NCBI GenBank assembly: GCA_016788065.1
Contig: JAEUTI010000007.1
Location: 1 to 42,066 of the forward strand
Reading direction: 5' to 3'
DNA: 42,066 bases
DNA from: Bacteroidia bacterium
GTDB taxonomy: Bacteria; Bacteroidota; Bacteroidia; AKYH767-A; OLB10
Shown here: positions 17,518 through 34,321 of the stretch, piece after piece
Position numbering within the stretch: the stretch's first letter is position 1
Layout of the letters: the number at the start of each line of letters is the position of its first letter
Program-made: the position numbers and the translations under genes
The notes under the pieces: generated by a model
Database searches by the model: none
Told to the model about the DNA's origin: nothing
What the model saw: the letters and a program-made list of their open reading frames with translations, nothing else

Positions 17518-17604
17518 CCGACTAATTTCATGGCTAAAGGCTAAAATCACATTTAATTACTTGTGATTCAATTAATTAAAAATCCATTTCAATCAATCAT
17601 ATTC

Positions 17605-18393
17605 ATGATGAAATCAATTCTTTTCAAACAAAAATCGGGATACTTTAGTTTATTGCTATTTGTATTGATGTTCCTTTCTTCCTGTCTGAATAGAAAGCAT
17701 ACTGATTATTTTCAAAAAGATACTGAGGCCAGAAAGAATATGGATACCTTATCAATGCCGGAAGTTTTTGAACCAAAGATTGAACCTAACGATATTCTTG
17801 CAATCCATATTTCAAGTATCAATGCAGAAGCAGCCAGTTTTTTCAATCCAGCTCAATCGAATGCCGGTGAAGCCGGAACCGAAATGACCAATTACCTGGT
17901 CGATTTGAAAGGTGAAATTGAGATACCATTAGTTGGGAAACTAAAAGTTCAGGGACAATCAACCCGTGAAGTAAGAGAAGCATTACGCCAAAAACTTGAG
18001 AAGTACCTTCAGGATCCTTCGGTGCGCATATATCTGGAATCTTTCAAAGTAACTTTATTAGGTGAAGTTAAACTACCAGGCGTATACCAGGTAAAAAATG
18101 AGAAATTGACTCTCCCGGATGCTTTAGGACTTGCCGGTGATATGACAATCTATGGTGATCGAAAATCTGTCATGGTTATTCGTAATGTTAAAGGACAAAA
18201 AGTATTTTCAAGCATTGACCTCACAACCAGAGATATTTTTCAATCTGAATATTATTACTTACGACCAGGAGATGTTGTATACGTAGCTGCAGGAAAAGGA
18301 AGATTAGCATCTGCAGATGCATTTTACCGAATTGCTCCATTGGTAATCAGTGCTTTATCCCTGATTGCCATACTAGCCACAAGAGTTAACTAA
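17605..18393 (+). CDS. Wza-like polysaccharide export lipoprotein (Poly_export/SLBB)
   Basis: A 262-residue outer-membrane polysaccharide export protein. ATG 17605 starts a lipoprotein signal peptide ending in the lipobox LSSC, which predicts a lipidated Cys. A Poly_export domain follows (IEPNDILAIHISS, then NYLVDLKGEIEIPLVGKLKV) and one SLBB-type domain (TLLGEVKLPGVYQVKNEKL). The C-terminus has a hydrophobic helix (IAPLVISALSLIAILATRV). The frame opens upstream at GTG 17563, which would bury the signal peptide. It forms the outer-membrane channel that works with the Wzc-like protein encoded 17 bp downstream. Confidence 0.92.
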   Translation: MMKSILFKQKSGYFSLLLFVLMFLSSCLNRKHTDYFQKDTEARKNMDTLSMPEVFEPKIEPNDILAIHISSINAEAASFFNPAQSNAGEAGTEMTNYLVDLKGEIEIPLVGKLKVQGQSTREVREALRQKLEKYLQDPSVRIYLESFKVTLLGEVKLPGVYQVKNEKLTLPDALGLAGDMTIYGDRKSVMVIRNVKGQKVFSSIDLTTRDIFQSEYYYLRPGDVVYVAAGKGRLASADAFYRIAPLVISALSLIAILATRVN

Positions 18394-18410: not shown

Positions 18411-20822
18411 ATGACTGATACTCAGAAAGACCAAAAATTACAGGACGAGAAGCGATTCAACATTAAGCACTTCTTTTACAGAAACGTTCTCAAATACTGG
18501 TATTTATATGTAATAAGTTTGGCTTTGGCCATATTAGCCGGGTATTATTACAATTGGTACACCACTCCGGTCTATTCAGCATCGTGTACAATTCTTATTA
18601 AGGATGATAAACGAACTGCTCCCGGTCAGGATCTGTTGACTCAGTTAAACTCATTGGATAACCAGGGTGGAATTGATAATGATGTTGAGTTAATTAAATC
18701 AAGATCCATTATTAGTAAAACACTCCGTCGCCTTGAATTCGATATTACTTATTTACTAAGAGGTAATGTAAAACGCTCGGAACTTTACTTGCAGTCGCCT
18801 ATTAAATTAATTACAGATTCTGTTTCTTTTAAAATCTACGAGAAACACATTGAAGTTTCAGTAATAGATGACAAAACCTATGAGATCAGTTACAAGTTAA
18901 ATGACGACAAAACCAATGTTGAAAAATATCGGTTCGGCCAGGAAGTAACAAACAGCTTTGGTAAATTTACCATTGAGAAGACCGATAAATTTCGTGATGC
19001 ATCTTTCAGAAGTGCAGATTATGAAAAACGAAATTTTCTGATTATCATTCACAATTTTGACAATCTCGTTGATAAGTATACAAAAGGATTATCAATTGAA
19101 TTTGTTTCTAAAAAATCCACAGTCCTTAAGCTTTCTTTCAATGATCCTGTCCCACAAAAGGCAGGTGATTTCTTAAACACCCTGCTTGAAGTATATATCC
19201 AAAGTGGTATTGATCAAAAAAATGAAAATGCTGCAAGCTCGCTTAAATTTATTGATGAACAACTTGATAAAATTACCAATGATTTAAAATCTTCTGAGGA
19301 AGATCTGGAATTATTCAAGACTGAAAAAGGCATCACTGATTTAGGAACTGAAGCACAATCATTTCTTGGAAGTGTGAAAGTTTACGATGAGAAAATTTCC
19401 GAAATCGATATTCAATTATCATTCCTCAGATACCTTGAAGATTACATTTTAAAAGATAAAGATTTAGATAAAATATCTCCTTCTTCATTAGGAATTGCTG
19501 ATCCGTTGCTGACCAAATTAATCACTTCCTTAAGTGATCTTCAAATGCAAAGAAAAGGTCAGCTAAACTCAACACAACCCGACAATCCAATCATTGTATC
19601 TCTGAATATTCAGATACAAAACACGAAACAGGATTTATTGGAAAACGTACGTTCTATAAAAAATGGACTTGAAGCTTCCAGAGATCAGGCATCAATTCAA
19701 CTTGCCAGAATTCAGGGCAAAATCAAAACGGTGCCTAAGACACAACGTGAACTCGTTGGCATGGAGCGTCAGGCAACCATCCGCGAAGGTTTATACAATT
19801 ATCTGCTTCAGAAAAAAGCTGAAACTGCCATTTTATTGGCTTCAACTAATTCAGACAACAGAATTGTAGATAAAGCAACTGCTTCTTACAAACCAATCAG
19901 GCCGGTTCCAAATCAAACCTATTCTTTTGCTATTTTATTGGGACTGCTCATACCTGCAATTTTTATTTTCCTTAAAGAGGCGTTGAATGACAGAATTAAA
20001 GACGGGTCAGATCTGGAAAACAATACTTCAATTCCGGTACTTGGACTGGTTGGCTATAATGAGGATCATGACAATCAAATCGTAGCTTCGAAACCAGATT
20101 CATTTATTTCGGAATCTTTCCGCTCTATCAGAACTAACCTGCAATATTATCCCCAAAAAGGAAAGTGCCGGAAAATTCTGGTTACATCGTCTATCAGCTC
20201 TGAAGGAAAGAGTTTTTGTGCAGCTAACCTTTCTGCCATTTATGCAATGTCAGGAAAAAAAGTTGTACTGGTGGGTGGTGACTTAAGAAAGCCGAAAAAG
20301 AATGAAGAATTCAACTTGCCTTCTAACAGCGGAATCTCGAACTTCCTGATTGGCGCTTCTGATATAGCCGGTGTTATTCAGTCCTCTTCAACTGTTCCTA
20401 ACCTGGATATTATTCTTTCAGGTCCTAAACCTCCAAATCCATCCGAGCTTATTATGAGTTCTAAAATGGATGATTTCTTTAACTATTTGGAAGCAAATTA
20501 TGAGGTCATAGTAATTGACTCACCTCCTATTGGTGTTGTAACCGATGGTATGCTTTTGAGTAAATATGTTGACAACACTATTTATGTTGTTCGTCAGAAT
20601 GTTACCAGGAAACAACACATCGAATTCATTAATAGCCTTTATAAAGACTCCAAGTTACCGAACCTCAGTTTAATTTTCAACGCGGTAAAAACAAATCAGT
20701 TGGGTTACGGATATGGCTATGGTTACGGCTATGGCTATGGCTATGGTTATGGCTATGGTTATTATGAAGATGACACAAAGTCAAAAAAAGGTCGCAGGAA
20801 AAAATCTTCAAAAACGACCTAA
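18411..20822 (+). CDS. Wzc-like polysaccharide co-polymerase / tyrosine autokinase
   Basis: An 803-residue inner-membrane protein. Transmembrane helices at about 29-47 and 504-521 flank a large Wzz-like periplasmic domain with coiled coils (270-470). The cytoplasmic BY-kinase domain has a Walker A motif SSISSEGKS (Lys600), a Walker A' segment VVLVGGDLRKP (618-628) and Walker B VIVIDSPP (699-706). The first Asp of the usual A' DxD is Gly622, with Asp624 kept; I recall similar changes in other Bacteroidota Wzc proteins. The C-terminus is ten Gly-Tyr pairs plus one Tyr (residues 765-785), the phosphorylatable tyrosine cluster, then an Arg/Lys-rich tail. It sets chain length and drives export together with the Wza-like protein. 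Confidence 0.94.
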   Translation: MTDTQKDQKLQDEKRFNIKHFFYRNVLKYWYLYVISLALAILAGYYYNWYTTPVYSASCTILIKDDKRTAPGQDLLTQLNSLDNQGGIDNDVELIKSRSIISKTLRRLEFDITYLLRGNVKRSELYLQSPIKLITDSVSFKIYEKHIEVSVIDDKTYEISYKLNDDKTNVEKYRFGQEVTNSFGKFTIEKTDKFRDASFRSADYEKRNFLIIIHNFDNLVDKYTKGLSIEFVSKKSTVLKLSFNDPVPQKAGDFLNTLLEVYIQSGIDQKNENAASSLKFIDEQLDKITNDLKSSEEDLELFKTEKGITDLGTEAQSFLGSVKVYDEKISEIDIQLSFLRYLEDYILKDKDLDKISPSSLGIADPLLTKLITSLSDLQMQRKGQLNSTQPDNPIIVSLNIQIQNTKQDLLENVRSIKNGLEASRDQASIQLARIQGKIKTVPKTQRELVGMERQATIREGLYNYLLQKKAETAILLASTNSDNRIVDKATASYKPIRPVPNQTYSFAILLGLLIPAIFIFLKEALNDRIKDGSDLENNTSIPVLGLVGYNEDHDNQIVASKPDSFISESFRSIRTNLQYYPQKGKCRKILVTSSISSEGKSFCAANLSAIYAMSGKKVVLVGGDLRKPKKNEEFNLPSNSGISNFLIGASDIAGVIQSSSTVPNLDIILSGPKPPNPSELIMSSKMDDFFNYLEANYEVIVIDSPPIGVVTDGMLLSKYVDNTIYVVRQNVTRKQHIEFINSLYKDSKLPNLSLIFNAVKTNQLGYGYGYGYGYGYGYGYGYGYYEDDTKSKKGRRKKSSKTT
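20703..20765 (+). repeat. Hexanucleotide (Gly-Tyr) repeat in the kinase tail
   Basis: Ten GG(N)TA(Y) units followed by TAT encode ten Gly-Tyr pairs and an eleventh Tyr in frame. Units differ only at third codon positions. Gain or loss of a unit keeps the frame, so tail length and tyrosine number can vary between strains without killing the gene. Confidence 0.95.
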
Positions 20823-20857
20823 GCTAATTGCAAAAGGGGAAACTAACTCCTTTTACC

Positions 20858-22201
20858 ATGATAAAATTTCTCCGAAAAAAATTAGATAGCCAAATTAAGA
20901 CACTGCTTAAAAACAGTTCATGGGTTATCTACTCCTTTATTTTCGGAACTCTTCTGGCTTTTGTCAGAAGCATCATTGTAGCGCGTGGATTGGGTGCTGA
21001 GCTTTTTGGAATTTATGCAGTTATCACAGCATTTATAGGAACTTTGCAGGCAATATTCAATTTGAATCTTGGAGCCGTTGTCATCAAATACGGCTCAACC
21101 TATAAAACTGAAAACCGGGAAGATAAAATAGTATCACTTGTTAAATTGTGTTTTCTTGCCAGCAGTGTGGCGATTGTAATTTCGGTGTTAATCGTATCAG
21201 GATTTGTACTGTTTTCTTATGATACATTTATTAAAGCACCCGGTTTAGGCTGGTTTGCTATTCTGTACTCTATTGCCGCTTCCGGATTATTTTTCACACA
21301 AATAAGTAAAGGTACCTTAAGGTTATACTTCAAATTCAAGTCAAATTCAATAGTCCAAATGGTTATAGACTTTATTGAAGTATTGCTTATCTTCCTTTCG
21401 TTATATTTCTTCCCTAAAAATCTAAATATGTTCCTGTTGGCAATTCTTGTTTCCAGGCTTGTAAACAATGTAATACCCAATATTGCTGCTTTCAGAGAAC
21501 TCATTCCAGAATTAAGAACACATTTAGACGCTTCCATTAGTCTGATTAAATCTCAATTTAAACAAATTGGATATTTTGCCTTTCACAATTCGCTTGCTAA
21601 GACTTTGCAAACTTTAATTAACACAGGAGATATTCTGATCATTGGATTATTTGCTGGCAGTCCAACACAAGCAGGCTTTTACAGCGTCGGGAAACGTGTT
21701 GCATTTTCAATTTTGGCACTCACAGATCCTTTAGTTTCCTCTATATATCCACAATTGTGTTTACTTTATGCTGAGAATAAAATTTCAGAAATAAAGAGAA
21801 TGATTTTGAAGCTTTCAATGATGGCAGCAGTTCCTGCTACAGTTCTGGTGCTCATTGCCTTTTTCTTTCACGAAATTATTATGAAAACTTTATATGGTCC
21901 GGAATACATCGCTGCAGGTGAAACCTTTTATCTGTTAACCGGTGCGTCACTTATTTCAGCGGTATTCTTCTGGATTCATCCATTACTTCAAGCGTTGGAT
22001 CTGCTGAAAATCAGATTAAAAATATATCTTATTGGAATTTCAGCAGGACTGATTTCAGCCTATTTTTTAGTTCCTCTTTATGGCTCAAAAGGAATGGCCT
22101 TTTCTTTAATTTTAGTTAACCTCACAATGCCCTATTTTCTTATTCATTATTCTCTAAAAAAGCTTAATGAATCAAAAATTGAAAACAAAGAAATTAATTG
22201 A
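20858..22201 (+). CDS. Wzx-like polysaccharide flippase (MATE/MOP superfamily)
   Basis: A 447-residue polytopic membrane protein with about 12-14 hydrophobic helices. The N-terminal pattern SWVIYSFIFGTLLAFVRSII and VARGLGAELFGIYA is typical of the polysaccharide biosynthesis (RfbX/Wzx) family. It would flip the undecaprenyl-linked repeat unit to the periplasm for polymerisation. I prefer ATG 20858; a TTG at 20828, 5 bp after the kinase stop, adds ten residues. It ends 3 bp before the sulfotransferase gene. Confidence 0.9.
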   Translation: MIKFLRKKLDSQIKTLLKNSSWVIYSFIFGTLLAFVRSIIVARGLGAELFGIYAVITAFIGTLQAIFNLNLGAVVIKYGSTYKTENREDKIVSLVKLCFLASSVAIVISVLIVSGFVLFSYDTFIKAPGLGWFAILYSIAASGLFFTQISKGTLRLYFKFKSNSIVQMVIDFIEVLLIFLSLYFFPKNLNMFLLAILVSRLVNNVIPNIAAFRELIPELRTHLDASISLIKSQFKQIGYFAFHNSLAKTLQTLINTGDILIIGLFAGSPTQAGFYSVGKRVAFSILALTDPLVSSIYPQLCLLYAENKISEIKRMILKLSMMAAVPATVLVLIAFFFHEIIMKTLYGPEYIAAGETFYLLTGASLISAVFFWIHPLLQALDLLKIRLKIYLIGISAGLISAYFLVPLYGSKGMAFSLILVNLTMPYFLIHYSLKKLNESKIENKEIN

Positions 22202-23096: not shown

Positions 23097-24098
23097 ATGA
23101 ACTCGAACCGGTTCCATTCTATTCTTTCCAAATATATAAATACCGGATGCCTGAACCGAACCGATAAGCTTTTATCTTTTATTAATGGTAAAATTCCTTT
23201 TCAAAAAAATGCTACATCTATAGTTAAAGAGTTCAATCAACTTGATGATGCTGTTATCGGAAACTCGGTACAATACTTATGTAATAAATATAATGGCGGG
23301 AACAAGAAGGTTCAGGAAATAATGAAATTCCTTCAGAGTGAATTATCCAATGATTTGAAAGGAGCATTCCTGCATGGAAGTCTGGCAACAAATGAAGGAA
23401 TACCCTACAGCGACTTTGATGGTTTAGTAATAATTAAAAATGAAGTCTTCAAGGACAAAGATCGGCTGATTTCAGTTGCTATCAAATTGAGTAAAGCTTA
23501 TTCGATGATGATATCTATGGATGCTCTGCAACACCATGGATGGTTTGTGATGACAGAAAAAGATTGTAAAAATTGGCCAAACAACTACTTTCCCCCAATA
23601 CTTTTCGAATATTCCCAATCGCTACTCTTTTCCAATGCAGTTATTGATCTAACCTATTTGCCATCCATTGAAAAAGATAAAGCAGCATTGTTGCGACTCT
23701 GCTCATCAACGGCTAACCACCTTCGTTCGTTAACAATACCGGATAATAGCTTCCAGCTAAAAAGTATTTTGAGCGAATTTATGTTACTGCCATCTCTGTA
23801 TATTCAGTATAAGACCGGCAAAGGCATTTACAAGAAATTCAGTTTCGAAGAAGCAGCCAAAGATTTTACTCCAAACGAATGGGAGATCATGAATGAAGTA
23901 TCAGCCATTCGTGAGAACTGGGATCTTAATACAGGCATTGAGCTCTTCGAATCCCCGGTAATAGTGACTCCCTGGCTTAAAAAACAGCAAGTTAACAGGA
24001 GCAGCAAAATATCCCATGAATTGCGGATCAAAATGGATCCGGACTTTGTCGGAAGAATGATGAAGTTTACCAATTTAATCCGTAGCAAAATCATATGA
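23097..24098 (+). CDS. Nucleotidyltransferase-fold protein of unknown function (first of an adjacent pair)
   Basis: A 333-residue protein. Residues 88-115 carry a polymerase-beta-type nucleotidyltransferase signature: FLHGSLA (Gly94-Ser95), a short loop, then YSDFDGLVII with Asp106 and Asp108. Asp142 in SMDALQHHG is a candidate third acidic residue. The remainder is mostly helical and not recognised. Such domains transfer NMP to proteins, sugars, drugs or RNA; the target here is not evident. It is not a LicD-type enzyme by motif. The stop overlaps the start of the next gene by 4 bp (ATGA), implying translational coupling with the second nucleotidyltransferase-like protein. Confidence 0.6.
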   Translation: MNSNRFHSILSKYINTGCLNRTDKLLSFINGKIPFQKNATSIVKEFNQLDDAVIGNSVQYLCNKYNGGNKKVQEIMKFLQSELSNDLKGAFLHGSLATNEGIPYSDFDGLVIIKNEVFKDKDRLISVAIKLSKAYSMMISMDALQHHGWFVMTEKDCKNWPNNYFPPILFEYSQSLLFSNAVIDLTYLPSIEKDKAALLRLCSSTANHLRSLTIPDNSFQLKSILSEFMLLPSLYIQYKTGKGIYKKFSFEEAAKDFTPNEWEIMNEVSAIRENWDLNTGIELFESPVIVTPWLKKQQVNRSSKISHELRIKMDPDFVGRMMKFTNLIRSKII

Positions 24099-25066
24099 AA
24101 TACAAGTACATTGATATTCCGTCTGAAATTTCATTGAATTCCTACGAAACCGCCATCGAAAGAATGGTAGCAACGCTGCTGCAATCGGAAAGTGTTAAAT
24201 GCATCTATCAAATCGGAGGTGTTTCCTCCCCGGGAATATCAGACATTGATCTGTATGTTGTTTTTCATGATAATCAATCATTTCTATCCAATCCCGTTGA
24301 AAAGTTATCTTTTCCTGACAATCAATTATTTACTCATAAATTATTTGGTTGTTGCGAGTCCTTTGCCACTCAACTGGAACAATTTACGTATTTTGGTAAT
24401 TATAAATTACTTGGAGGAACCCCGGTAATTATGAATAATTATTTTGCAAATATTGAAGAGGATGAACTCTTAAAAAAACAGATTGCAATAGAATACCTCA
24501 TAAAAGCATGGTTCAGCATATACATCAACATTACCTATGGATTAATTAAGCTCAGAAGTTTATTATTACATTCCAAAGCTATTCTGTATGATTTGGATTT
24601 CCTGGATATAAAGACAGGCAAATTGCATGAATGCATCCATGAACTTTTGGAAATAAGAAAAAATTACTTCCAAACAAAACCAGACTTCAAAAAATTGGAT
24701 CTCTTGTGTGAAACATACAGCCAAGAATTAGAGAATGAAATTATAAAAGCTATTTCTAATTACAAGTTTTATATTTCAAAAACAGGAAACAGGCAAATAA
24801 GTAAAAGAGCTAACATAGTATATAAAGCGAAACCAGGCATAACTAATTCAGGAGTAACGTTCCCTATTCAAATTACTAAAAATGTAAAAAGCATTCAAAG
24901 ACTACAAAACAAATTAAATTCCTATAAAGTTGGTGTACCATTTGAAGAGACTAATCTACCTGCAATCATCTCTAAGAGATCGGAGATTATTGGATCAGCA
25001 ATAAATTACAACAGAACTAACTTACCGAACTTCATAAGCACTGCATATGGCATCAATATATTTTAA
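24095..25066 (+). CDS. Nucleotidyltransferase-fold protein of unknown function (second of an adjacent pair)
   Basis: A 323-residue protein. The pattern QIGGVSSPGISDIDLYVVF (residues 39-57) matches the active-site entry of minimal nucleotidyltransferases: a Gly/Ser turn followed by Asp50-x-Asp52. The rest has a helical middle (about 155-245) and a Lys/Asn-rich end, neither recognised. The first gene of the pair uses a similar catalytic pattern but the two proteins share little else, so they are not simple duplicates. The 4-bp overlap suggests they act together. Placement between a sulfotransferase and a methyltransferase suggests modification of the polysaccharide or a lipid-linked intermediate, but this is inference. 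Confidence 0.55.
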   Translation: MKYKYIDIPSEISLNSYETAIERMVATLLQSESVKCIYQIGGVSSPGISDIDLYVVFHDNQSFLSNPVEKLSFPDNQLFTHKLFGCCESFATQLEQFTYFGNYKLLGGTPVIMNNYFANIEEDELLKKQIAIEYLIKAWFSIYINITYGLIKLRSLLLHSKAILYDLDFLDIKTGKLHECIHELLEIRKNYFQTKPDFKKLDLLCETYSQELENEIIKAISNYKFYISKTGNRQISKRANIVYKAKPGITNSGVTFPIQITKNVKSIQRLQNKLNSYKVGVPFEETNLPAIISKRSEIIGSAINYNRTNLPNFISTAYGINIF

Positions 25067-25077
25067 ATCTTTCTAAT

Positions 25078-25803
25078 ATGGCAATTCGGAATCTTGGCGC
25101 AATTATAGTAGATACACTGAGGTATGATTTTATTAAGAAATCCTTTACAAATTCAGGCCCCAGAGAATATTTGCTGGATTTAGGTTGCGGCGTTAAACCA
25201 TTCAAACCCTATTACGACACGATAGCTAAAAAATCAATTGGTATTGATGTAGCACAAAGTCCACATGGCACAAATGCTGTCGATATTGTTTATGATGGAA
25301 AAATATTCCCCTTTAAAGAGAGCGAATTTGATTTGGTGTTTTGTACAGAAGTTATGGAACATGTTCCTGACCCCGTTTTATTTCTTTCTGAAATAAACAG
25401 AGTTATGCAAATGAATGGAAAGCTAATTATGACGACACCATTCATGGTGCCACTTCATGAAGAGCCATATGATTTCTATCGTTATACCAAATATGGAATT
25501 AAAGAACTTCTTACACGATCAGGATTTGAGGTAGAACAAATAACTCCTTTTGCCGATTATTTTGGAGTAATAATGGCTTTCCAAATGCAAATCTATCTCA
25601 AGTTCTGGAATACACTTTCAAAATTAACCAGGCTGAATGTATTATATACGGAATACAATCCATTTATTTTTTTACCGGTTGTTGTTCCTCAATGGCTGTA
25701 TCTGCAATATTTAAAACTTCCGCTTCCAAAAGGACTTAGAAGGTATTTATTCAGAACAACCCGCGGTTATGGATATACTGCAATAAAAAGAAGAAATCTC
25801 TAA
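25078..25803 (+). CDS. Class I SAM-dependent methyltransferase
   Basis: A 241-residue protein with a Methyltransf_11-type Rossmann domain. Motif I is YLLDLGCGVKPF (residues 31-42), an acidic residue ending strand 2 is in SIGIDVA, and the motif IV-like segment is FDLVFCTEVMEHVPDP, followed by the post-motif NRVMQMNGKLIMTTPF. The C-terminal third is aromatic-rich and includes a mildly hydrophobic stretch (FIFLPVVVPQWLYLQYL). The substrate is likely a glycan or lipid-linked sugar given the neighbours. It lies 11 bp after and 2 bp before its neighbours. Confidence 0.88.
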   Translation: MAIRNLGAIIVDTLRYDFIKKSFTNSGPREYLLDLGCGVKPFKPYYDTIAKKSIGIDVAQSPHGTNAVDIVYDGKIFPFKESEFDLVFCTEVMEHVPDPVLFLSEINRVMQMNGKLIMTTPFMVPLHEEPYDFYRYTKYGIKELLTRSGFEVEQITPFADYFGVIMAFQMQIYLKFWNTLSKLTRLNVLYTEYNPFIFLPVVVPQWLYLQYLKLPLPKGLRRYLFRTTRGYGYTAIKRRNL

Positions 25804-28292: not shown

Positions 28293-29393
28293 GTGAAGTA
28301 CAAATTATTAATTCTCGGCAAGCTTCCTCCTCCCTATATGGGACCTTCTATAGCCTTTCAAATACTGATCAATTCAGGATTGAAAAATGAATTCAATCTC
28401 GACTATTTAGATGTTACAGCAAATGAGAATCTGAATACCTTAGGCAAGTGGAGTCTGAAAAAAGTATTTACTAACCTGGATATTTATAGAAAACTAGGTA
28501 AAAAGTTAAAAAACAATAAGCCTGATGTCGTTCTTATCCCAATAAGTCAAACTGGGTTAGGATTTTTTAAGGACTCTGTGTTTATAGTAATATGCAAACT
28601 CTATGGATGCAAAGTAATGATTCAGTTGAGAGGAAGCGGATTCAAACATTGGGTTCAAAATTCCAATCCTCTGAATAAATTTTACGTTAATCTCATACTT
28701 AAAATCCCAAAAGGTGTAATAGTTTTAGGTAATAACCTTAAATATTTGTTTGCCGATTACTTTAAGGAAAATGAAATTTACGTTGTTCCTAACGGCGGAA
28801 ATTACAATGTGAATGACCGAACTTATACGAATAACAACAAAGTCAAATTAATTTATTTAGCAAACTTACAACCATCAAAAGGAATTGAAGATGTTATTGA
28901 CGCCTTAGTAATTCTTAACAAAAAATTGCCCAATTCCTTTTCTATGACTATAATTGGAGAGTGGCGTAAGAATGAAACTAAAATAAAATGCCTGGATATA
29001 ATAGAAAAAAATAATCTCCCAGTTACTTTCTATAATTCAGAAGTAAGTAAAAATAAATTCGACTATCTCACTTCAAGTGATATTTTCATTTTTACGCCAC
29101 GTGAACCTGAAGGCCACCCATGGGTGATCGTGGAAGCCATGGCTTCAGGATTACCAATAATTTCAACAGATCAGGGAGCAATAATAGAATCGGTTATTGA
29201 TGGTGTTAATGGATACATTGTACCTGTCAAGTCGCCGGATATCATAGCCGACAAACTGATAACTCTGATTAATAATTATGATCTGAGACATAAAATGAGT
29301 GTAAGCAGTCGCAACATGTACCTTGAAAAATTTACTGAAACTAAAATGGTTTCCAACTATACTTCCGCTTTAAAGTCTGTTATTGAAAAATGA
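28293..29393 (+). CDS. Glycosyltransferase family 4 (GT-B fold)
   Basis: A 366-residue GT-B enzyme starting at GTG 28293, 4 bp after the Wzy-like gene. The N-terminus LILGKLPPPYMGPSIAF is a common start for this GT4 group. The donor domain includes LIYLANLQPSKGIEDVIDAL and an E-x7-E motif (Glu273/Glu281 in EPEGHPWVIVEAMASGLP). This is the second of only two glycosyltransferases in the locus besides the initiating sugar transferase, which suggests a short repeat unit or further enzymes elsewhere. Confidence 0.92.
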   Translation: MKYKLLILGKLPPPYMGPSIAFQILINSGLKNEFNLDYLDVTANENLNTLGKWSLKKVFTNLDIYRKLGKKLKNNKPDVVLIPISQTGLGFFKDSVFIVICKLYGCKVMIQLRGSGFKHWVQNSNPLNKFYVNLILKIPKGVIVLGNNLKYLFADYFKENEIYVVPNGGNYNVNDRTYTNNNKVKLIYLANLQPSKGIEDVIDALVILNKKLPNSFSMTIIGEWRKNETKIKCLDIIEKNNLPVTFYNSEVSKNKFDYLTSSDIFIFTPREPEGHPWVIVEAMASGLPIISTDQGAIIESVIDGVNGYIVPVKSPDIIADKLITLINNYDLRHKMSVSSRNMYLEKFTETKMVSNYTSALKSVIEK

Positions 29394-29472: not shown

Positions 29473-31614
29473 ATGGAACAATTAACCCAAAGTTTAAAAG
29501 ACGGACAAATGAATTTACTTGATGTGCCATTCCCGGCACTCAATGATGGTTGCATTTTAGTTCGTAATCACTTTTCATTAATAAGTGCGGGTACTGAAGG
29601 AAAAACAGTAAAAGATGCACGACTTGGATATATTGGAAAAGCACGTGCAAGAAAAGATGAAGTGAAGAAGGTTATTCAAACCGCAAAAACTATGGGTATA
29701 ATGAAAACCTATAGAATGGTCATGAATAAACTTGATGCTCCTACTCCACTTGGATATTGTTGCGCCGGCGAAGTCATTGAAGTCGCTGACGATGTTACCG
29801 AATTCCGCATTGGAGATATGGTGGCATGTGGAGGAAACTCTGCAAATCATTCTGAAGTTGTGGCCGTACCAAAAAATCTATGTGTAAAAATTCCAGTTGG
29901 TGTTCATCCTGAACAGGCATCAATTGCAACCTTAGGTGCCATTGCTATGCAAGGTATCAGACAGGCTGATTTAAGACTTGGTGAGAGTGCAGCTGTTATT
30001 GGACTTGGTTTGATAGGACAATTAACTATTCAGATGTTAAAAGCTTCCGGTGTTAAAACAATAGGAATTGATATAGATGCTACTCAAGTAAATATCGCAT
30101 TGCAAAATGGTGCCGACATGGCTTACACCAGAAACAGCGAATATATTTATAAAGCCATTGAAGAACTTACAAATAATTATGGAGTTGATGCTGTAATTAT
30201 TACTGCCGGCACAGCTTCTACTGATCCAATCGATTTTTCCGGAGAAATTTGCAGACAAAAGGGAAAAGTGGTCGTTGTTGGAGCTGTCCCGACCGGTTTT
30301 AAAAGAAATAACTATTTTAAGAAAGAACTTGACCTTAGAATGTCATGCTCCTACGGCCCAGGGAGATACGATAGTGATTATGAAGAAAAAGGTATCGATT
30401 ATCCTTATGGCTATGTAAGATGGACTGAAAACAGAAATATGGAAGCGTTTCTGGAATTAATCCGTTCAAAAAAAATAAATATTGAGCCATTTATCAGCCA
30501 CAGATTTAGTTTTAATGATGCTGTTAAAGCATACGATTTAATCGTGAACCGAAGCGAACCTTTTCTTGGCATTGTTTTAAATTATGATATCACAAAAAAA
30601 CTGGTTTCTACAGTTCACAATGAAAAAAATAGTTTTCAAAATTTAACTGCAGGTACTCCTGTTATTGGATTTATTGGAGCTGGTAATTTTGCCCAAAATT
30701 TCCTTTTACCTTCAATTGGGAAAAGTGGTGTTTTAAAAGGAATTACTACCGCCAGACCTGCAAATGCCAAAAACTTAGCTGACAAGTACAACTTTAAATA
30801 TTGTACAGGAAACTCTGAAGAAATACTTAACGATAAGGAAATAAACACCATTTTCATAGCCACTCGCCACGACTCCCACGCGGCCTATGTTATCAAATCT
30901 CTTCAAAGTGGAAAGAATGTTTTTGTTGAAAAACCACTTTGCATGACTCTTTCAGAATTGGATGAAATAAAAGATATTCAAGAAAAATCCGGGAAATCAC
31001 TTATGGTGGGCTTTAACAGAAGATTTTCTCCACTCATAAAAGATCTCACAAAACTAGTCCATGAAAAGGCCAACTCACAAATAGCTATCAATTACAGAAT
31101 AAATGCAGGAGTTGTACCTTCAGATCATTGGATTCATGACAAATCAGTTGGAGGTGGACGAATCATTGGTGAAGCATGTCACTTTATAGATCTCGCGTCT
31201 TTCATAGCTAACTCCCCTATAGTTTCGGTGAGTGCAGTTGCCGTGAATGATTCATTAGCCCAAAACGACACTGCTGCAATTAATTTATATTTCGAAAATG
31301 CAAGCGTTGCAAATATTTCATATTTCTCAAACGGAAATAAAGATGTTGGTAAAGAATATTTAGAAGTATTTTTCGGAGGCAGAATTGGTGTAATCGACGA
31401 TTTTCAATCTCTAAAAGTTTTTGGCAAATCAACAACTGAAAAAAAATCAAAAGGTATGGATAAAGGACATGCACAGGAAGTTGCTGCCTTCCTCGAAAGT
31501 ATTCAGGCTGGTGCTCCCTGCCCTATCCCTTTTGAACAACAATACAATAGTTTTAAAGCTACATTTAAAGTCATGCAATCAATTGCATCAAACGGCGAAC
31601 GAATAATTGTATAA
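29473..31614 (+). CDS. Two-domain oxidoreductase: MDR dehydrogenase fused to Gfo/Idh/MocA oxidoreductase
   Basis: A 713-residue fusion. Residues 1-375 are a medium-chain dehydrogenase/reductase (GYCCAGEVIEVADDVTEF near 94-111, NAD-binding GLGLIG at 177-182). Residues 395-713 are a Gfo/Idh/MocA domain (FIGAGNFAQ near 400-408, EKPL at 486-489). The MDR half lacks the usual catalytic-zinc Cys region and has SLISAGTEGK at the corresponding place. Fusions like this occur in Bacteroidota and proteobacterial polysaccharide clusters, often beside heparinase II/III-like proteins, and are thought to modify a sugar by oxidation-reduction. The precise reaction is not established to my knowledge. Confidence 0.9.
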   Translation: MEQLTQSLKDGQMNLLDVPFPALNDGCILVRNHFSLISAGTEGKTVKDARLGYIGKARARKDEVKKVIQTAKTMGIMKTYRMVMNKLDAPTPLGYCCAGEVIEVADDVTEFRIGDMVACGGNSANHSEVVAVPKNLCVKIPVGVHPEQASIATLGAIAMQGIRQADLRLGESAAVIGLGLIGQLTIQMLKASGVKTIGIDIDATQVNIALQNGADMAYTRNSEYIYKAIEELTNNYGVDAVIITAGTASTDPIDFSGEICRQKGKVVVVGAVPTGFKRNNYFKKELDLRMSCSYGPGRYDSDYEEKGIDYPYGYVRWTENRNMEAFLELIRSKKINIEPFISHRFSFNDAVKAYDLIVNRSEPFLGIVLNYDITKKLVSTVHNEKNSFQNLTAGTPVIGFIGAGNFAQNFLLPSIGKSGVLKGITTARPANAKNLADKYNFKYCTGNSEEILNDKEINTIFIATRHDSHAAYVIKSLQSGKNVFVEKPLCMTLSELDEIKDIQEKSGKSLMVGFNRRFSPLIKDLTKLVHEKANSQIAINYRINAGVVPSDHWIHDKSVGGGRIIGEACHFIDLASFIANSPIVSVSAVAVNDSLAQNDTAAINLYFENASVANISYFSNGNKDVGKEYLEVFFGGRIGVIDDFQSLKVFGKSTTEKKSKGMDKGHAQEVAAFLESIQAGAPCPIPFEQQYNSFKATFKVMQSIASNGERIIV

Positions 31615-31616
31615 TT

Positions 31617-32789
31617 ATGAATAATATTGTTAATGCTGACACCCTTATTTCCGAGTCTCTTCACAGGCTTCAACATTATATCGAAAAGGAAGCATTTAAA
31701 GGATATGATCCCTATGATGCGTTAAAGTCACCATTATTTAAACTCCCTGTTTTAAAGAACAATAAAATCATTCGATTTGGGACACAACAACTGGTTAAAC
31801 GATTTCCATTGAATTTAAGGCCGGTTCTTTTCATTAAAAAAGGGTTGAATCCGGTAACTCTGGGACTGGCAATTCAAGCTTATGTAGCTATTGGTAAAGC
31901 AGGCCAGCTTTCACTTGATGAAGTTAATAACAAATGCAAACCTCTTATAGATCAACTAGTGAGTCTGATTCCTCCAGGTTATCATGGAGCTTGTTGGGGC
32001 TACGACTTTGACTGGGAGTCACGCTATGCAAAAATTCCTGCGTATCAACCTACCATTGTAGCTACAGGCTTCATTACAAATGCCCTGTTTAAATTATACA
32101 AATTAACAGGTAGTAAAGAAGCCATTGATTTGTGCACAAGCGCCTGTGAATTTATTTATAATGATATTAATCATTTTGAAGCTCCGGATGGTTCTGTTTG
32201 CTTTTCCTATTCACCTTTCGACAAAATCCAGGTATTTAATGCCAGTATGAAAGGGGTTCGATTATTGTCTCAGGTTTATAGTGTGAACAATGATAAAAAA
32301 CTAGCCATACTTGCTAAAAAAGGAGCATCATTTGTTGCAGGTCACCAACAAAATGACGGCTCCTGGAAATATGCAGCTTTAAACAAGGGAGAGTGGATTG
32401 ATAACTACCATACAGGTTATGTCCTCGATTGCTTCGATGAATACCAAAAATGTTGTAATGATAATTCATACGATCAGCAAATTAAAAATGGTTATGAGTT
32501 TTACCTGAACTCATTTTTCGAAAATGGAGAAATTCCAAAGTTTTTTAACAACAATACCTTTCCTATCGATTGTACCTCCGCAGGTCAATCTATTTTAACT
32601 TTAATACGGTTTGGAAATATTGAAACAGCTAAGAAAGTTGCCCTTTACACGATTAAAAACATGCAACATAATTCCGGCTATTTCTATTTCAGGAAATACC
32701 AATACTTCACAGAAAAACACTCTTTTATGAGATGGTCAAATGCCTGGATGTTTGCAGCTTTAGCCGAACTTCAGTCTTCAATCCGGTAA
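31617..32789 (+). CDS. Alpha/alpha-toroid protein of polysaccharide clusters (possible epimerase/lyase-like)
   Basis: A 390-residue soluble protein with repeated helical hairpins and Gly-rich turns (GYHGACWGYDFDWESR, ATGFITNALFKLY, GHQQNDGSWKYA, GEWIDNYHTGYVLDCF). This suggests an (alpha/alpha)n toroid like those of glucuronyl C5-epimerases, polysaccharide lyases and GH88/GH105-type proteins. Conserved aromatic and acidic residues in these loops would face a sugar-binding cleft. I recognise the type as a common partner of the two-domain oxidoreductase, whose gene ends 2 bp earlier, but not its function. No signal peptide is seen, so it acts in the cytoplasm. It ends this tightly packed transcript. 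Confidence 0.6.
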   Translation: MNNIVNADTLISESLHRLQHYIEKEAFKGYDPYDALKSPLFKLPVLKNNKIIRFGTQQLVKRFPLNLRPVLFIKKGLNPVTLGLAIQAYVAIGKAGQLSLDEVNNKCKPLIDQLVSLIPPGYHGACWGYDFDWESRYAKIPAYQPTIVATGFITNALFKLYKLTGSKEAIDLCTSACEFIYNDINHFEAPDGSVCFSYSPFDKIQVFNASMKGVRLLSQVYSVNNDKKLAILAKKGASFVAGHQQNDGSWKYAALNKGEWIDNYHTGYVLDCFDEYQKCCNDNSYDQQIKNGYEFYLNSFFENGEIPKFFNNNTFPIDCTSAGQSILTLIRFGNIETAKKVALYTIKNMQHNSGYFYFRKYQYFTEKHSFMRWSNAWMFAALAELQSSIR

Positions 32790-33139: not shown

Positions 33140-34246
33140 ATGAGGAATAATATACTATCTGCTAAAGAAAAAAGCGAAGGTAAATTACGCGATCTTTTTA
33201 AGTTTGGGAATGTTAGAAATTCTATTCTTAAAGATCCGGGTCAGGAGGTATACGATTATTTATCCGAGTACGTAAGCCTGGAAAATGAAAGAACAATGGT
33301 ATTGATGACCAAGACAGCATTCAATGTTCATGCTCTTTCAGACAATTATTTTGATACGCTTGTCAATTTTGCCCGCATCAATGATATTCAACGCATAAAT
33401 AAATTTTTTGAAGCGGTGAATGGCAAACTACCGAAAGACGGATTGTTTGTGGGATGTGTGGAAACCAAAGGGGACAGAAAACATCGGATATTGAAAAAGT
33501 ATCCCTGGGGATTTTCTCATATTTATTACTTCTTTGATTTTATCCTTAAAAGGATTTTCCCAAAACTTCCAATTACAAAAAAGATATATTTCAAAATCAC
33601 TAGTGGTCGAAATCGCGTGATTTCAAGAACAGAAACTCTTGGAAGATTATACAGCTGTGGATTTAGTGTATTGGATGAGAAAAAAATCAATGGCAGAATG
33701 TACTTCGTAGTCAGGAAAATTGATGAACCTGCTTTTGATGAAGAACCATCCTACGGGCCAATTTGCAAAATGAGACGATTTGGCAAAGGTGGCAAAATTA
33801 TAAGTGTATACAAATTCCGCACAATGCATCCTTTTTCAGAATATTTGCAACAATACATTTATGAAAGAAATCAGTTAAAAGAAGGTGGCAAGTTCAAAGA
33901 TGATTTCAGAATATCCACAGTTGGCAAGTTTATGCGAAAATATTGGCTTGACGAACTTCCAATGATCATAAATCTTCTGAAAGGTGATCTTAAAATTGTT
34001 GGTGTTCGTCCTTTAAGTAAACAATATCTGAATCTTTATACTGATGAACTTAAAGCCAAAAGACTTCAGCACACTCCCGGATTAATCCCTCCATTTTATG
34101 CTGACCTCCCTAAAACACTTGATGAAATAATGGAATCAGAAATGAGGTACCTTACACAATATGAAAAGAATCCTATCCGAACTGATCTGAAATACTTCTT
34201 TAAAGCATTTAATCAAATATTTCTAAAAAAAGCAAGAAGTAATTGA
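33140..34246 (+). CDS. Sugar transferase (phosphoglycosyl transferase-like) with unusual N-terminal domain
   Basis: A 368-residue protein. Residues 206-368 match the bacterial sugar transferase (PglC/WbaP-type) catalytic domain: GPICKMRRFGKGGK, YKFRTMHP (224-231), the catalytic DE dyad in YWLDELP (Asp271-Glu272), KGDLKIVGVRPLS and TPGL. This family moves a phosphosugar to undecaprenyl phosphate to start the repeat unit. The hydrophobic re-entrant helix that normally precedes GP[IV] is missing; instead residues 1-200 form a mostly soluble domain ending GFSVLDEKKINGRMYFVVRK, which looks like the last part of a class I methyltransferase fold without a visible SAM motif. It is separate from the main operon and followed by a strong terminator. 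Confidence 0.88.
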   Translation: MRNNILSAKEKSEGKLRDLFKFGNVRNSILKDPGQEVYDYLSEYVSLENERTMVLMTKTAFNVHALSDNYFDTLVNFARINDIQRINKFFEAVNGKLPKDGLFVGCVETKGDRKHRILKKYPWGFSHIYYFFDFILKRIFPKLPITKKIYFKITSGRNRVISRTETLGRLYSCGFSVLDEKKINGRMYFVVRKIDEPAFDEEPSYGPICKMRRFGKGGKIISVYKFRTMHPFSEYLQQYIYERNQLKEGGKFKDDFRISTVGKFMRKYWLDELPMIINLLKGDLKIVGVRPLSKQYLNLYTDELKAKRLQHTPGLIPPFYADLPKTLDEIMESEMRYLTQYEKNPIRTDLKYFFKAFNQIFLKKARSN

Positions 34247-34255
34247 TACTACAAA

Positions 34256-34294
34256 TAAAAAGAACGCTACCATCGAAAGGTAGCGTTCTTTTTA
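34256..34294. terminator. Bidirectional rho-independent terminator closing the polysaccharide locus
   Basis: A 16-bp perfect stem (34256-34271 with 34279-34294) surrounds a 7-nt loop. The G/C-containing core GAACGCTACC is bordered by A-rich and T-rich ends, so it can act on both strands. It lies between the convergent sugar transferase and T9SS protein genes. Confidence 0.93.
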
Positions 34295-34321
34295 TTTTAA
34301 CTCATGGTAACTATTTTGCAG

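What the first reader, a model, noticed from the sequence alone, without database searches (positions are those of the whole stretch)
33140..34246. Sugar transferase that lacks the membrane re-entrant helix and carries a methyltransferase-remnant-like domain
The catalytic half keeps KFRTM and the DE dyad, so it should be active, but the hydrophobic helix that seats phosphoglycosyl transferases in the membrane is absent. Residues 1-200 are replaced by a soluble domain whose end (GFSVLDEKKINGRMYFVVRK) resembles the tail of a Rossmann methyltransferase. The protein may reach the membrane by other means, use another acceptor or work with a partner.
Basis: partly seen in the sequence, partly recalled or inferred. 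Interest (0 to 1): 0.65.

Follow-up and report, generated by a model that had tools for sequence, protein, structure and literature searches.

The report
Sugar-phosphate transferase without usual membrane helix
This gene makes what is probably the starter enzyme of a bacterial surface polysaccharide, but the helix that seats all described enzymes of its kind in the membrane is gone and a broken-down methyltransferase domain stands in its place; close to a hundred relatives share the layout, so it is a real and apparently undescribed branch of a well-studied family.

Summary
The 368-aa protein (33140-34246, +) has a C-terminal phosphoglycosyl transferase (PGT) core (205-362) with KFRTM and the Asp-Glu dyad. 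The core begins exactly after the point where ordinary PGTs end their re-entrant membrane helix (RMH). No RMH-like hydrophobic stretch exists (best 19-residue hydropathy 0.87; 3.0 in two of this genome's ordinary PGTs). Residues 27-196 fold (AlphaFold2, pLDDT 89) as a class I methyltransferase-like domain. It lacks two strands and the SAM-binding motif, so it is probably not a methyltransferase.

This is not a lone oddity. About 100 homologues in Bacteroidota and nearby groups share the layout. Some 45 are soluble-looking like this one; others carry 4 or about 8 N-terminal transmembrane helices. All examined lack the RMH. The gene closes a Wza/Wzc/Wzx/Wzy polysaccharide cluster that holds no other PGT, so it most likely starts that polysaccharide.

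Best model: the methyltransferase-derived domain replaced the RMH. A proline-broken aromatic helix pair (125-154) and near-invariant Arg138, Arg159 and Arg169 would hold the core on the membrane and help bind polyprenyl phosphate. The replacement is shown by sequence; the membrane role is inferred. Published work describes the RMH as present in all members. New variant of a known kind.

The parts
33140..34246 (+). Whole gene: 368-aa RMH-less phosphoglycosyl transferase with N-terminal methyltransferase-like domain
   Evidence: ORF, Pfam, homologues
33218..33727 (+). Methyltransferase-like domain, residues 27-196
   Evidence: AlphaFold2 mean pLDDT 89; VIA-align Z up to 13.2 to class I SAM methyltransferases; weak CMAS match
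33293..33376 (+). Residues 52-79: first two strands of the domain with only about 17 residues between them; the place where the SAM motif and two strands of a full methyltransferase are missing
   Evidence: Secondary structure; comparison with the window's own methyltransferase at 25078-25803
33512..33601 (+). Proline-broken helix pair, residues 125-154 (FSHIYYFFDFILKRIFPKLPITKKIYFKIT): candidate membrane contact with R138 (72/72), P141 (71/72), Y150 (71/72)
   Evidence: helices 125-142, 144-154; highest interfacial-partition peak of the protein, 7.5 kcal/mol at 123-140; conservation
33620..33718 (+). Last helix and beta-hairpin of the methyltransferase-like domain, residues 161-193, with invariant E165, G168, R169, G174
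33719..33751 (+). Linker, residues 194-204; an ordinary PGT would have its RMH directly before the core here
33752..34225 (+). PGT catalytic core, residues 205-362
   Evidence: PF02397 E 8.5e-25; superposes on PglC 39-183 (Z 13.6) and WbaP 311-471 (Z 14.5)
33812..33826 (+). KFRTM motif, residues 225-229
   Evidence: K225, R227, T228, M229 invariant
33950..33955 (+). Catalytic Asp271-Glu272 dyad
   Evidence: Invariant in 72 sequences; aligned with the DE of WbaP
34172..34225 (+). C-terminal amphipathic helix, residues 345-362 (PIRTDLKYFFKAFNQIFL), second candidate membrane contact
17563..18393 (+). Wza-type polysaccharide export protein of the same cluster
   Evidence: PF02563
18411..20822 (+). 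Wzc-type chain-length/tyrosine kinase protein (identified by reading the sequence)
   Evidence: ORF; inferred from sequence
20828..22201 (+). Wzx-type flippase
   Evidence: PF01943
25806..26915 (+). Family 4 glycosyltransferase
   Evidence: PF00534, PF13439
27029..28288 (+). Multi-spanning protein, probable Wzy polymerase (no Pfam match; inferred)
   Evidence: ORF; no Pfam hit
28293..29393 (+). Glycosyltransferase (group 1)
   Evidence: PF00534
29473..31614 (+). Two-domain dehydrogenase (zinc dehydrogenase + GFO/IDH/MocA)
   Evidence: recurs near homologues of the PGT in four of the 80 loci
31617..32789 (+). Conserved cluster protein directly upstream (weak pectate-lyase match below cut-off)

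Best explanation
It is the initiating sugar-1-phosphate transferase of the Wzx/Wzy-type polysaccharide cluster it sits in. It moves a sugar-phosphate from a nucleotide sugar to a polyprenyl phosphate with the usual PGT core and Asp-Glu dyad. The re-entrant membrane helix is absent, and in its place before the core stands a degenerate class I methyltransferase-like domain that has lost the SAM site. I propose that this domain took over the two tasks of the RMH: its proline-broken aromatic helix pair (125-154), with the C-terminal amphipathic helix (345-362), rests on the membrane surface, and its conserved basic residues (R138, K142, R159, R169) help hold the phosphate of the lipid carrier. Other members add 4 or about 8 transmembrane helices in front, which would strengthen the anchoring. 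Shown: the core, the missing RMH, the fold and its missing motif, the family and its architectures, the gene cluster. Inferred: activity, the membrane contact, the phosphate binding, the sugar used.
For: Catalytic residues invariant over 72 sequences. R266, five residues before D271, is invariant; PglC Arg88, which lies five residues before its Asp93 (the Asp93-Glu94 numbering is from my own knowledge), binds undecaprenyl phosphate (PMC10519829). RMH absent in every member measured and present in nearly all other PGTs surveyed. Core superposes on PglC from residue 39 and on WbaP from 311. Methyltransferase-like fold, Z about 13. R138, E165, G168, R169 and G174 are invariant, and P141, Y150, G156 and R159 are 71/72, as strongly kept as the catalytic site. 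Helix pair has the highest interfacial-partition score of the protein (7.5 kcal/mol, against 0.8-6.6 for 19 other window proteins taken as soluble), and in 52 of 72 members the peak lies there, in 16 at the C-terminal helix. The most reduced member, L112, has lost the front of the domain but keeps the helix pair, the last helix and the beta-hairpin. Last gene of a Wza-Wzc-Wzx-GT-Wzy cluster with no other PF02397 or PF00953 protein in the window; homologues sit beside Wza/Wzc and sugar-modifying genes.
Against: No biochemical data. The helix pair is far less hydrophobic than an RMH (0.76 against 3.0), and one window protein taken as soluble (24095-25066) scores 6.6 on the interfacial scale, so the peak is suggestive only. 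The median value of the fixed segment 127-144 over the family is only 2.2. The genome has three other PF02397 and four PF00953 proteins that might start this polysaccharide. The region after the core motifs (PGLIPPFYADLPKTLDEI) differs from ordinary PGTs, so the substrate may differ.
Confidence: 0.62

Rival explanations
1. The methyltransferase-like domain is a regulatory or protein-docking module, as the PF13727 domain is thought to be in large PGTs, and the soluble forms are brought to the membrane by a partner such as Wzx, Wzy or a cluster glycosyltransferase.
For: 4-TM members have the layout of large PGTs (4 TM + Rossmann-like domain + core). Their TM part resembles that of ordinary large PGTs (hhalign score 27.7, controls at most 16). 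The PF13727 domain of WbaP binds uridine nucleotides and is proposed to regulate activity (PMC10942596). Conserved surface residues could serve docking.
Against: No TM gene recurs next to the soluble forms. Direct membrane-substrate enzymes normally need their own membrane contact. The methyltransferase-like domain shows no profile similarity to the PF13727 region (probability 0.4%).
Confidence: 0.25
2. The helix pair 125-154 is a shortened, displaced RMH, so the family is an ordinary monotopic PGT with an insertion between RMH and core.
For: [quoted passage not shown]). The most reduced members keep this part.
Against: Profile comparison with the RMH of ordinary PGTs is at control level. It is joined on both sides to methyltransferase strands in the model. 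The structural alignment to PglC starts at residue 38-39. Hydropathy is far below that of an RMH.
Confidence: 0.1
3. The protein is no longer a lipid-linked PGT: it transfers a sugar phosphate to a soluble acceptor, or is a degenerate, non-catalytic subunit.
For: Loss of the RMH; the unusual sequence after the core motifs; soluble predicted character of about half of the family. PGT-like parts without catalytic motifs do exist elsewhere.
Against: All catalytic motifs invariant in 72 sequences; close relatives with 4 or 8 TM helices; gene in a Wzx/Wzy cluster with no other PGT.
Confidence: 0.13
4. Artefact: a MAG assembly error or gene fusion.
For: The window comes from a draft genome of 97 contigs, and several homologues are from MAGs.
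Against: 88%-identical orthologue of the same length in another assembly, homologues in isolate genomes (Polaribacter, Aquimarina, Flavobacterium branchiophilum, Tangfeifania) and equal constraint on both domains.
Confidence: 0.01

Closest known systems
Small monotopic PGT, PglC (Campylobacter concisus, PDB 8e37/8g1n)
   Same: Catalytic core with the same fold (Z 13.6, 30% identity over 141 residues), KFR(S/T)M-type motif, Asp-Glu dyad, Arg five residues before the dyad
   Different: PglC residues 1-38 (RMH) have no counterpart; a 200-residue methyltransferase-like domain precedes the core instead
Large PGT, WbaP (Salmonella enterica, PDB 8t53)
   Same: Core (Z 14.5, 32% identity over 119 residues). 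4-TM members of the family have the same order of parts, and their TM segment resembles that of ordinary large PGTs
   Different: No PF13727 domain, no RMH, and in the window protein no TM helices at all
Class I SAM-dependent methyltransferases (for example PDB 3cc8, 1vl5, UbiG 4kdr)
   Same: Fold of residues 27-196 (Z 12-13)
   Different: About 17 residues between the first two strands instead of about 47 in the window's own methyltransferase; no glycine-rich motif I, no room for strands 2 and 3, so no recognisable SAM site
Bifunctional PGTs (Bi-PGT)
   Same: Extra domain fused to a PGT core (definition in PMC10942596)
   Different: Bi-PGTs are described as keeping the core with its RMH and adding a functional enzyme; here the added domain lacks its cofactor site and the RMH is gone

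Membership tests
Monotopic PGT superfamily (PF02397) | Homology to the PF02397 catalytic core | tested here: met
   E 8.5e-25, 87.8 bits against a cut-off of 27; Z 13.6 to PglC
Monotopic PGT superfamily (PF02397) | Catalytic Asp-Glu dyad and core motifs | tested here: met
   D271, E272, K225, R227, R290, P291 invariant in 72 sequences
Monotopic PGT superfamily (PF02397) | Re-entrant membrane helix directly before the core (stated as common to all members in PMC10519829) | tested here: not met
   Profile match starts at 36; hydropathy 0.87 against 3.0; core alignment starts after the RMH
Monotopic PGT superfamily (PF02397) | Transfer of a sugar-phosphate to polyprenyl phosphate | not testable with these tools
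   Cluster context only
Large PGT (Lg-PGT) | N-terminal four-helix membrane bundle | tested here: not met
   No TM helix in the window protein; 4 TM in about 44 of 100 homologues
Large PGT (Lg-PGT) | PF13727 domain | tested here: not met
   No PF13727 match in the window protein or in the other 71 members scanned; profile comparison with the PF13727 region at 0.4%
Class I SAM methyltransferase | Rossmann-like methyltransferase fold | tested here: met
   Residues 27-196, Z up to 13.2
Class I SAM methyltransferase | Glycine-rich SAM motif I and full seven-strand core | tested here: not met
   Five strands predicted, no glycine-rich loop after the first strand
Bifunctional PGT | Second, functional enzyme domain | tested here: inconclusive
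   The added domain is methyltransferase-like but lacks the SAM site; activity not testable

The most novel reading that the evidence does not exclude
A methyltransferase-derived domain has taken over the full role of the re-entrant helix in a widespread branch of PGTs: it alone seats the catalytic core on the membrane and supplies the basic residues that bind the polyprenyl phosphate, so the RMH is not obligatory for this chemistry, and membrane modules (0, 4 or about 8 helices) are exchanged freely in front of it.
Probability: 0.4. Interest if true: 0.75.

Novelty: new variant of a known kind. Interest (0 to 1): 0.6.

Why it matters
The RMH is described as part of the minimal catalytic domain of all members of the superfamily and as crucial for anchoring and for binding the polyprenyl phosphate (PMC10519829, PMC6133551). 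A conserved branch that works without it would show which of these tasks are really needed and how they can be replaced. Soluble-looking natural members of about 350 aa would also be attractive for structural work on an enzyme class that is hard to handle, and they would correct annotations that file these genes as ordinary 'sugar transferase'.

Tried and rejected
Homology of the helix pair 125-154 with the RMH: hhalign score 9.5, shuffled controls mean 9.0, maximum 17.2: no support. Homology of the methyltransferase-like domain with the PF13727 domain of large PGTs: probability 0.4%. A separate upstream or downstream membrane partner of the soluble forms: none recurs. dN/dS: dS saturated, so only dN was compared. 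Papers: searches for PGTs without RMH or with a methyltransferase-like domain found none; the library lacks most subscription journals, including, as far as I saw, the 2021 superfamily network paper. Sequence search of solved structures with the family profile found only PGTs, nothing for the N-terminal domain. In the 4-TM model the alignment with PglC starts at PglC residue 20, at the end of TM4; this concerns only a few residues and was not used. Two family searches failed on coordinates of mine; one was repeated correctly.

Full report
What is there. The gene at 33140-34246 (+) encodes 368 aa with a stop codon directly upstream in frame. Pfam finds PF02397, the PGT core, at 208-361, from profile position 36 only, and a sub-threshold CMAS methyltransferase match at 70-155. 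Solved relatives are WbaP and PglC, matched in the core only.

The missing helix. In 24 genomes of the same family, 60 other PF02397 matches start at profile position 1, while 19 homologues of the window protein start at 34-36. In a draw of 61 genomes across the phylum, nearly all of about 140 listed matches start at 1-7. The exceptions are the window protein, one of its homologues, a gene matched in two pieces, fragments, and three glycosyltransferase-2 fusions with a decayed PGT part. A profile alignment with ordinary PGTs begins at SYGP/SKGP, directly behind the RMH. The best hydropathy window of the protein is 0.87; two ordinary PGTs of the same genome reach 3.0 in the RMH. So the RMH is truly absent, and this is a family trait.

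The domain in its place. AlphaFold2 with 72 family sequences gave mean pLDDT 89.4 and pTM 0.80. Residues 27-196 match class I SAM methyltransferases (top Z 13.2 over 132 residues, nearly all other rows being methyltransferases), and residues 205-362 match WbaP 311-471 (Z 14.5) and PglC 39-183 (Z 13.6). Foldseek agrees. The methyltransferase-like domain has five strands. Between the first two lie about 17 residues, against about 47 between the matching strands of the window's own methyltransferase, and there is no glycine-rich motif. It is therefore very unlikely to bind SAM in the usual way. Both domains are equally constrained against the 88%-identical orthologue L024 (dN 0.079 and 0.075; dS saturated).

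The family. One search of genome contigs gave 130 related places, of which 80 were kept; they come from Bacteroidota (Bacteroidales, Flavobacteriia, Saprospiraceae and others), Ignavibacteria and Rhodothermales. In 395 genomes drawn across the phylum, 26 have a member. Among 100 sequences, 45 are soluble-looking, 44 carry a four-helix membrane part, 8 carry about eight helices, 2 have an HTH-like N-terminus and 1 is odd. None has an RMH before the core: a sliding-window count found TM-like stretches in the 345-residue core of only two members, at the threshold. On a tree of the shared part the architecture changes at least 9 times, and the eight-helix form is one clade, so the membrane modules come and go while the two domains stay together. 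The four-helix part resembles that of ordinary large PGTs (hhalign score 27.7, 20 shuffled controls at most 16). A simple history is a large PGT in which PF13727 and RMH were replaced by a methyltransferase-like domain, with later loss of the helices in several lines; the direction of change is inferred.

The candidate membrane contact. Between strand 5 and the next helix of the domain lies a helix pair, 125-142 and 144-154, broken at P141/P144. R138 is invariant in 72 sequences; P141, Y150, G156 and R159 in 71; K142 is K or R in all; E165, G168, R169 and G174 are invariant. Residues 123-140 have the highest interfacial-partition score of the protein (7.5 kcal/mol; next best elsewhere 1.4 at the C-terminal helix). 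19 other window proteins taken as soluble give 0.8-6.6, so the value is high but not unique. In 68 of 72 members the peak is in this helix pair or in the C-terminal helix. L112, the most reduced member, seems to have lost the front of the domain and keeps exactly the helix pair, the last helix and the beta-hairpin. In PglC the RMH anchors the enzyme and is thought to bind the polyprenyl phosphate together with amphipathic helices, and Arg88, Arg145 and Lys179 steer the lipid phosphate (PMC6133551, PMC10519829). Arg88 corresponds to R266 here by its spacing to the dyad. My reading is that the methyltransferase-derived domain replaced the RMH in both roles. This step is inference.

It is not a displaced RMH by the tests available: profile comparison is at control level and the structural alignment starts after the RMH. 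Coordinates could not be inspected, so a functional equivalence in space remains open.

Context and function. The gene closes a cluster with Wza, Wzc, Wzx, sulfotransferase, methyltransferase, two glycosyltransferases, a probable Wzy, a two-domain dehydrogenase and a conserved protein. The window has no other PF02397 or PF00953 protein; the genome's three other PF02397 and four PF00953 proteins lie on other contigs. Homologues lie next to Wza/Wzc, epimerase-like and other sugar genes (the names of most neighbours were read from their sequences, not tested). The ordinary role, starting the polysaccharide on a polyprenyl phosphate, is the best-supported one.

Membership and novelty. It is homologous to the monotopic PGTs in the core and keeps the catalytic motifs, but it fails the RMH criterion that published work treats as common to all members. 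It fails PF13727 and TM criteria of large PGTs and the SAM-site criterion of methyltransferases. I therefore call it a new variant of a known kind. No paper found describes it; the library is incomplete.

Noticed in passing
L154:17-2086, L155:2838-4832, L156 (minus strand, about 2.06 kb): 665-690-aa proteins made of a family 2 glycosyltransferase joined to a large-PGT-like part whose PF02397 section has lost KFRTM and the Asp-Glu dyad, next to an ordinary large PGT.
   Followed up: partly
L120 and L121 (family members, N-terminal 130 residues): Two members carry an N-terminal segment with a helix-turn-helix; L120 has a sub-threshold HTH_Tnp_1 transposase match (E 3e-4).
   Followed up: partly
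L104-L111: Eight members carry about eight TM helices in a 290-330-residue N-terminal part with no Pfam match where tested (L104), and form one clade.
   Followed up: partly
L112, L113, L114: Very divergent members; L112 seems to lack the front half of the methyltransferase-like domain.
   Followed up: partly
window 29473-32789; also L024, L025, L068, L079, L094: The two-domain dehydrogenase and/or the protein after it recur near the PGT homologue in several distant genomes, which hints at a shared sugar pathway.
   Followed up: partly
L022/L023 (G020), L010 (G008): Family members interrupted by stops or frameshifts, possibly decaying genes or assembly errors.
   Followed up: no
window 18411-20822: The Wzc-like protein ends in a long Gly-Tyr repeat (GYGYGYGYGY...).
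   Followed up: no
window 34255-34300: An inverted repeat (AAAAAGAACGCTACC...GGTAGCGTTCTTTTT) between the convergent genes looks like a two-way terminator.
   Followed up: no
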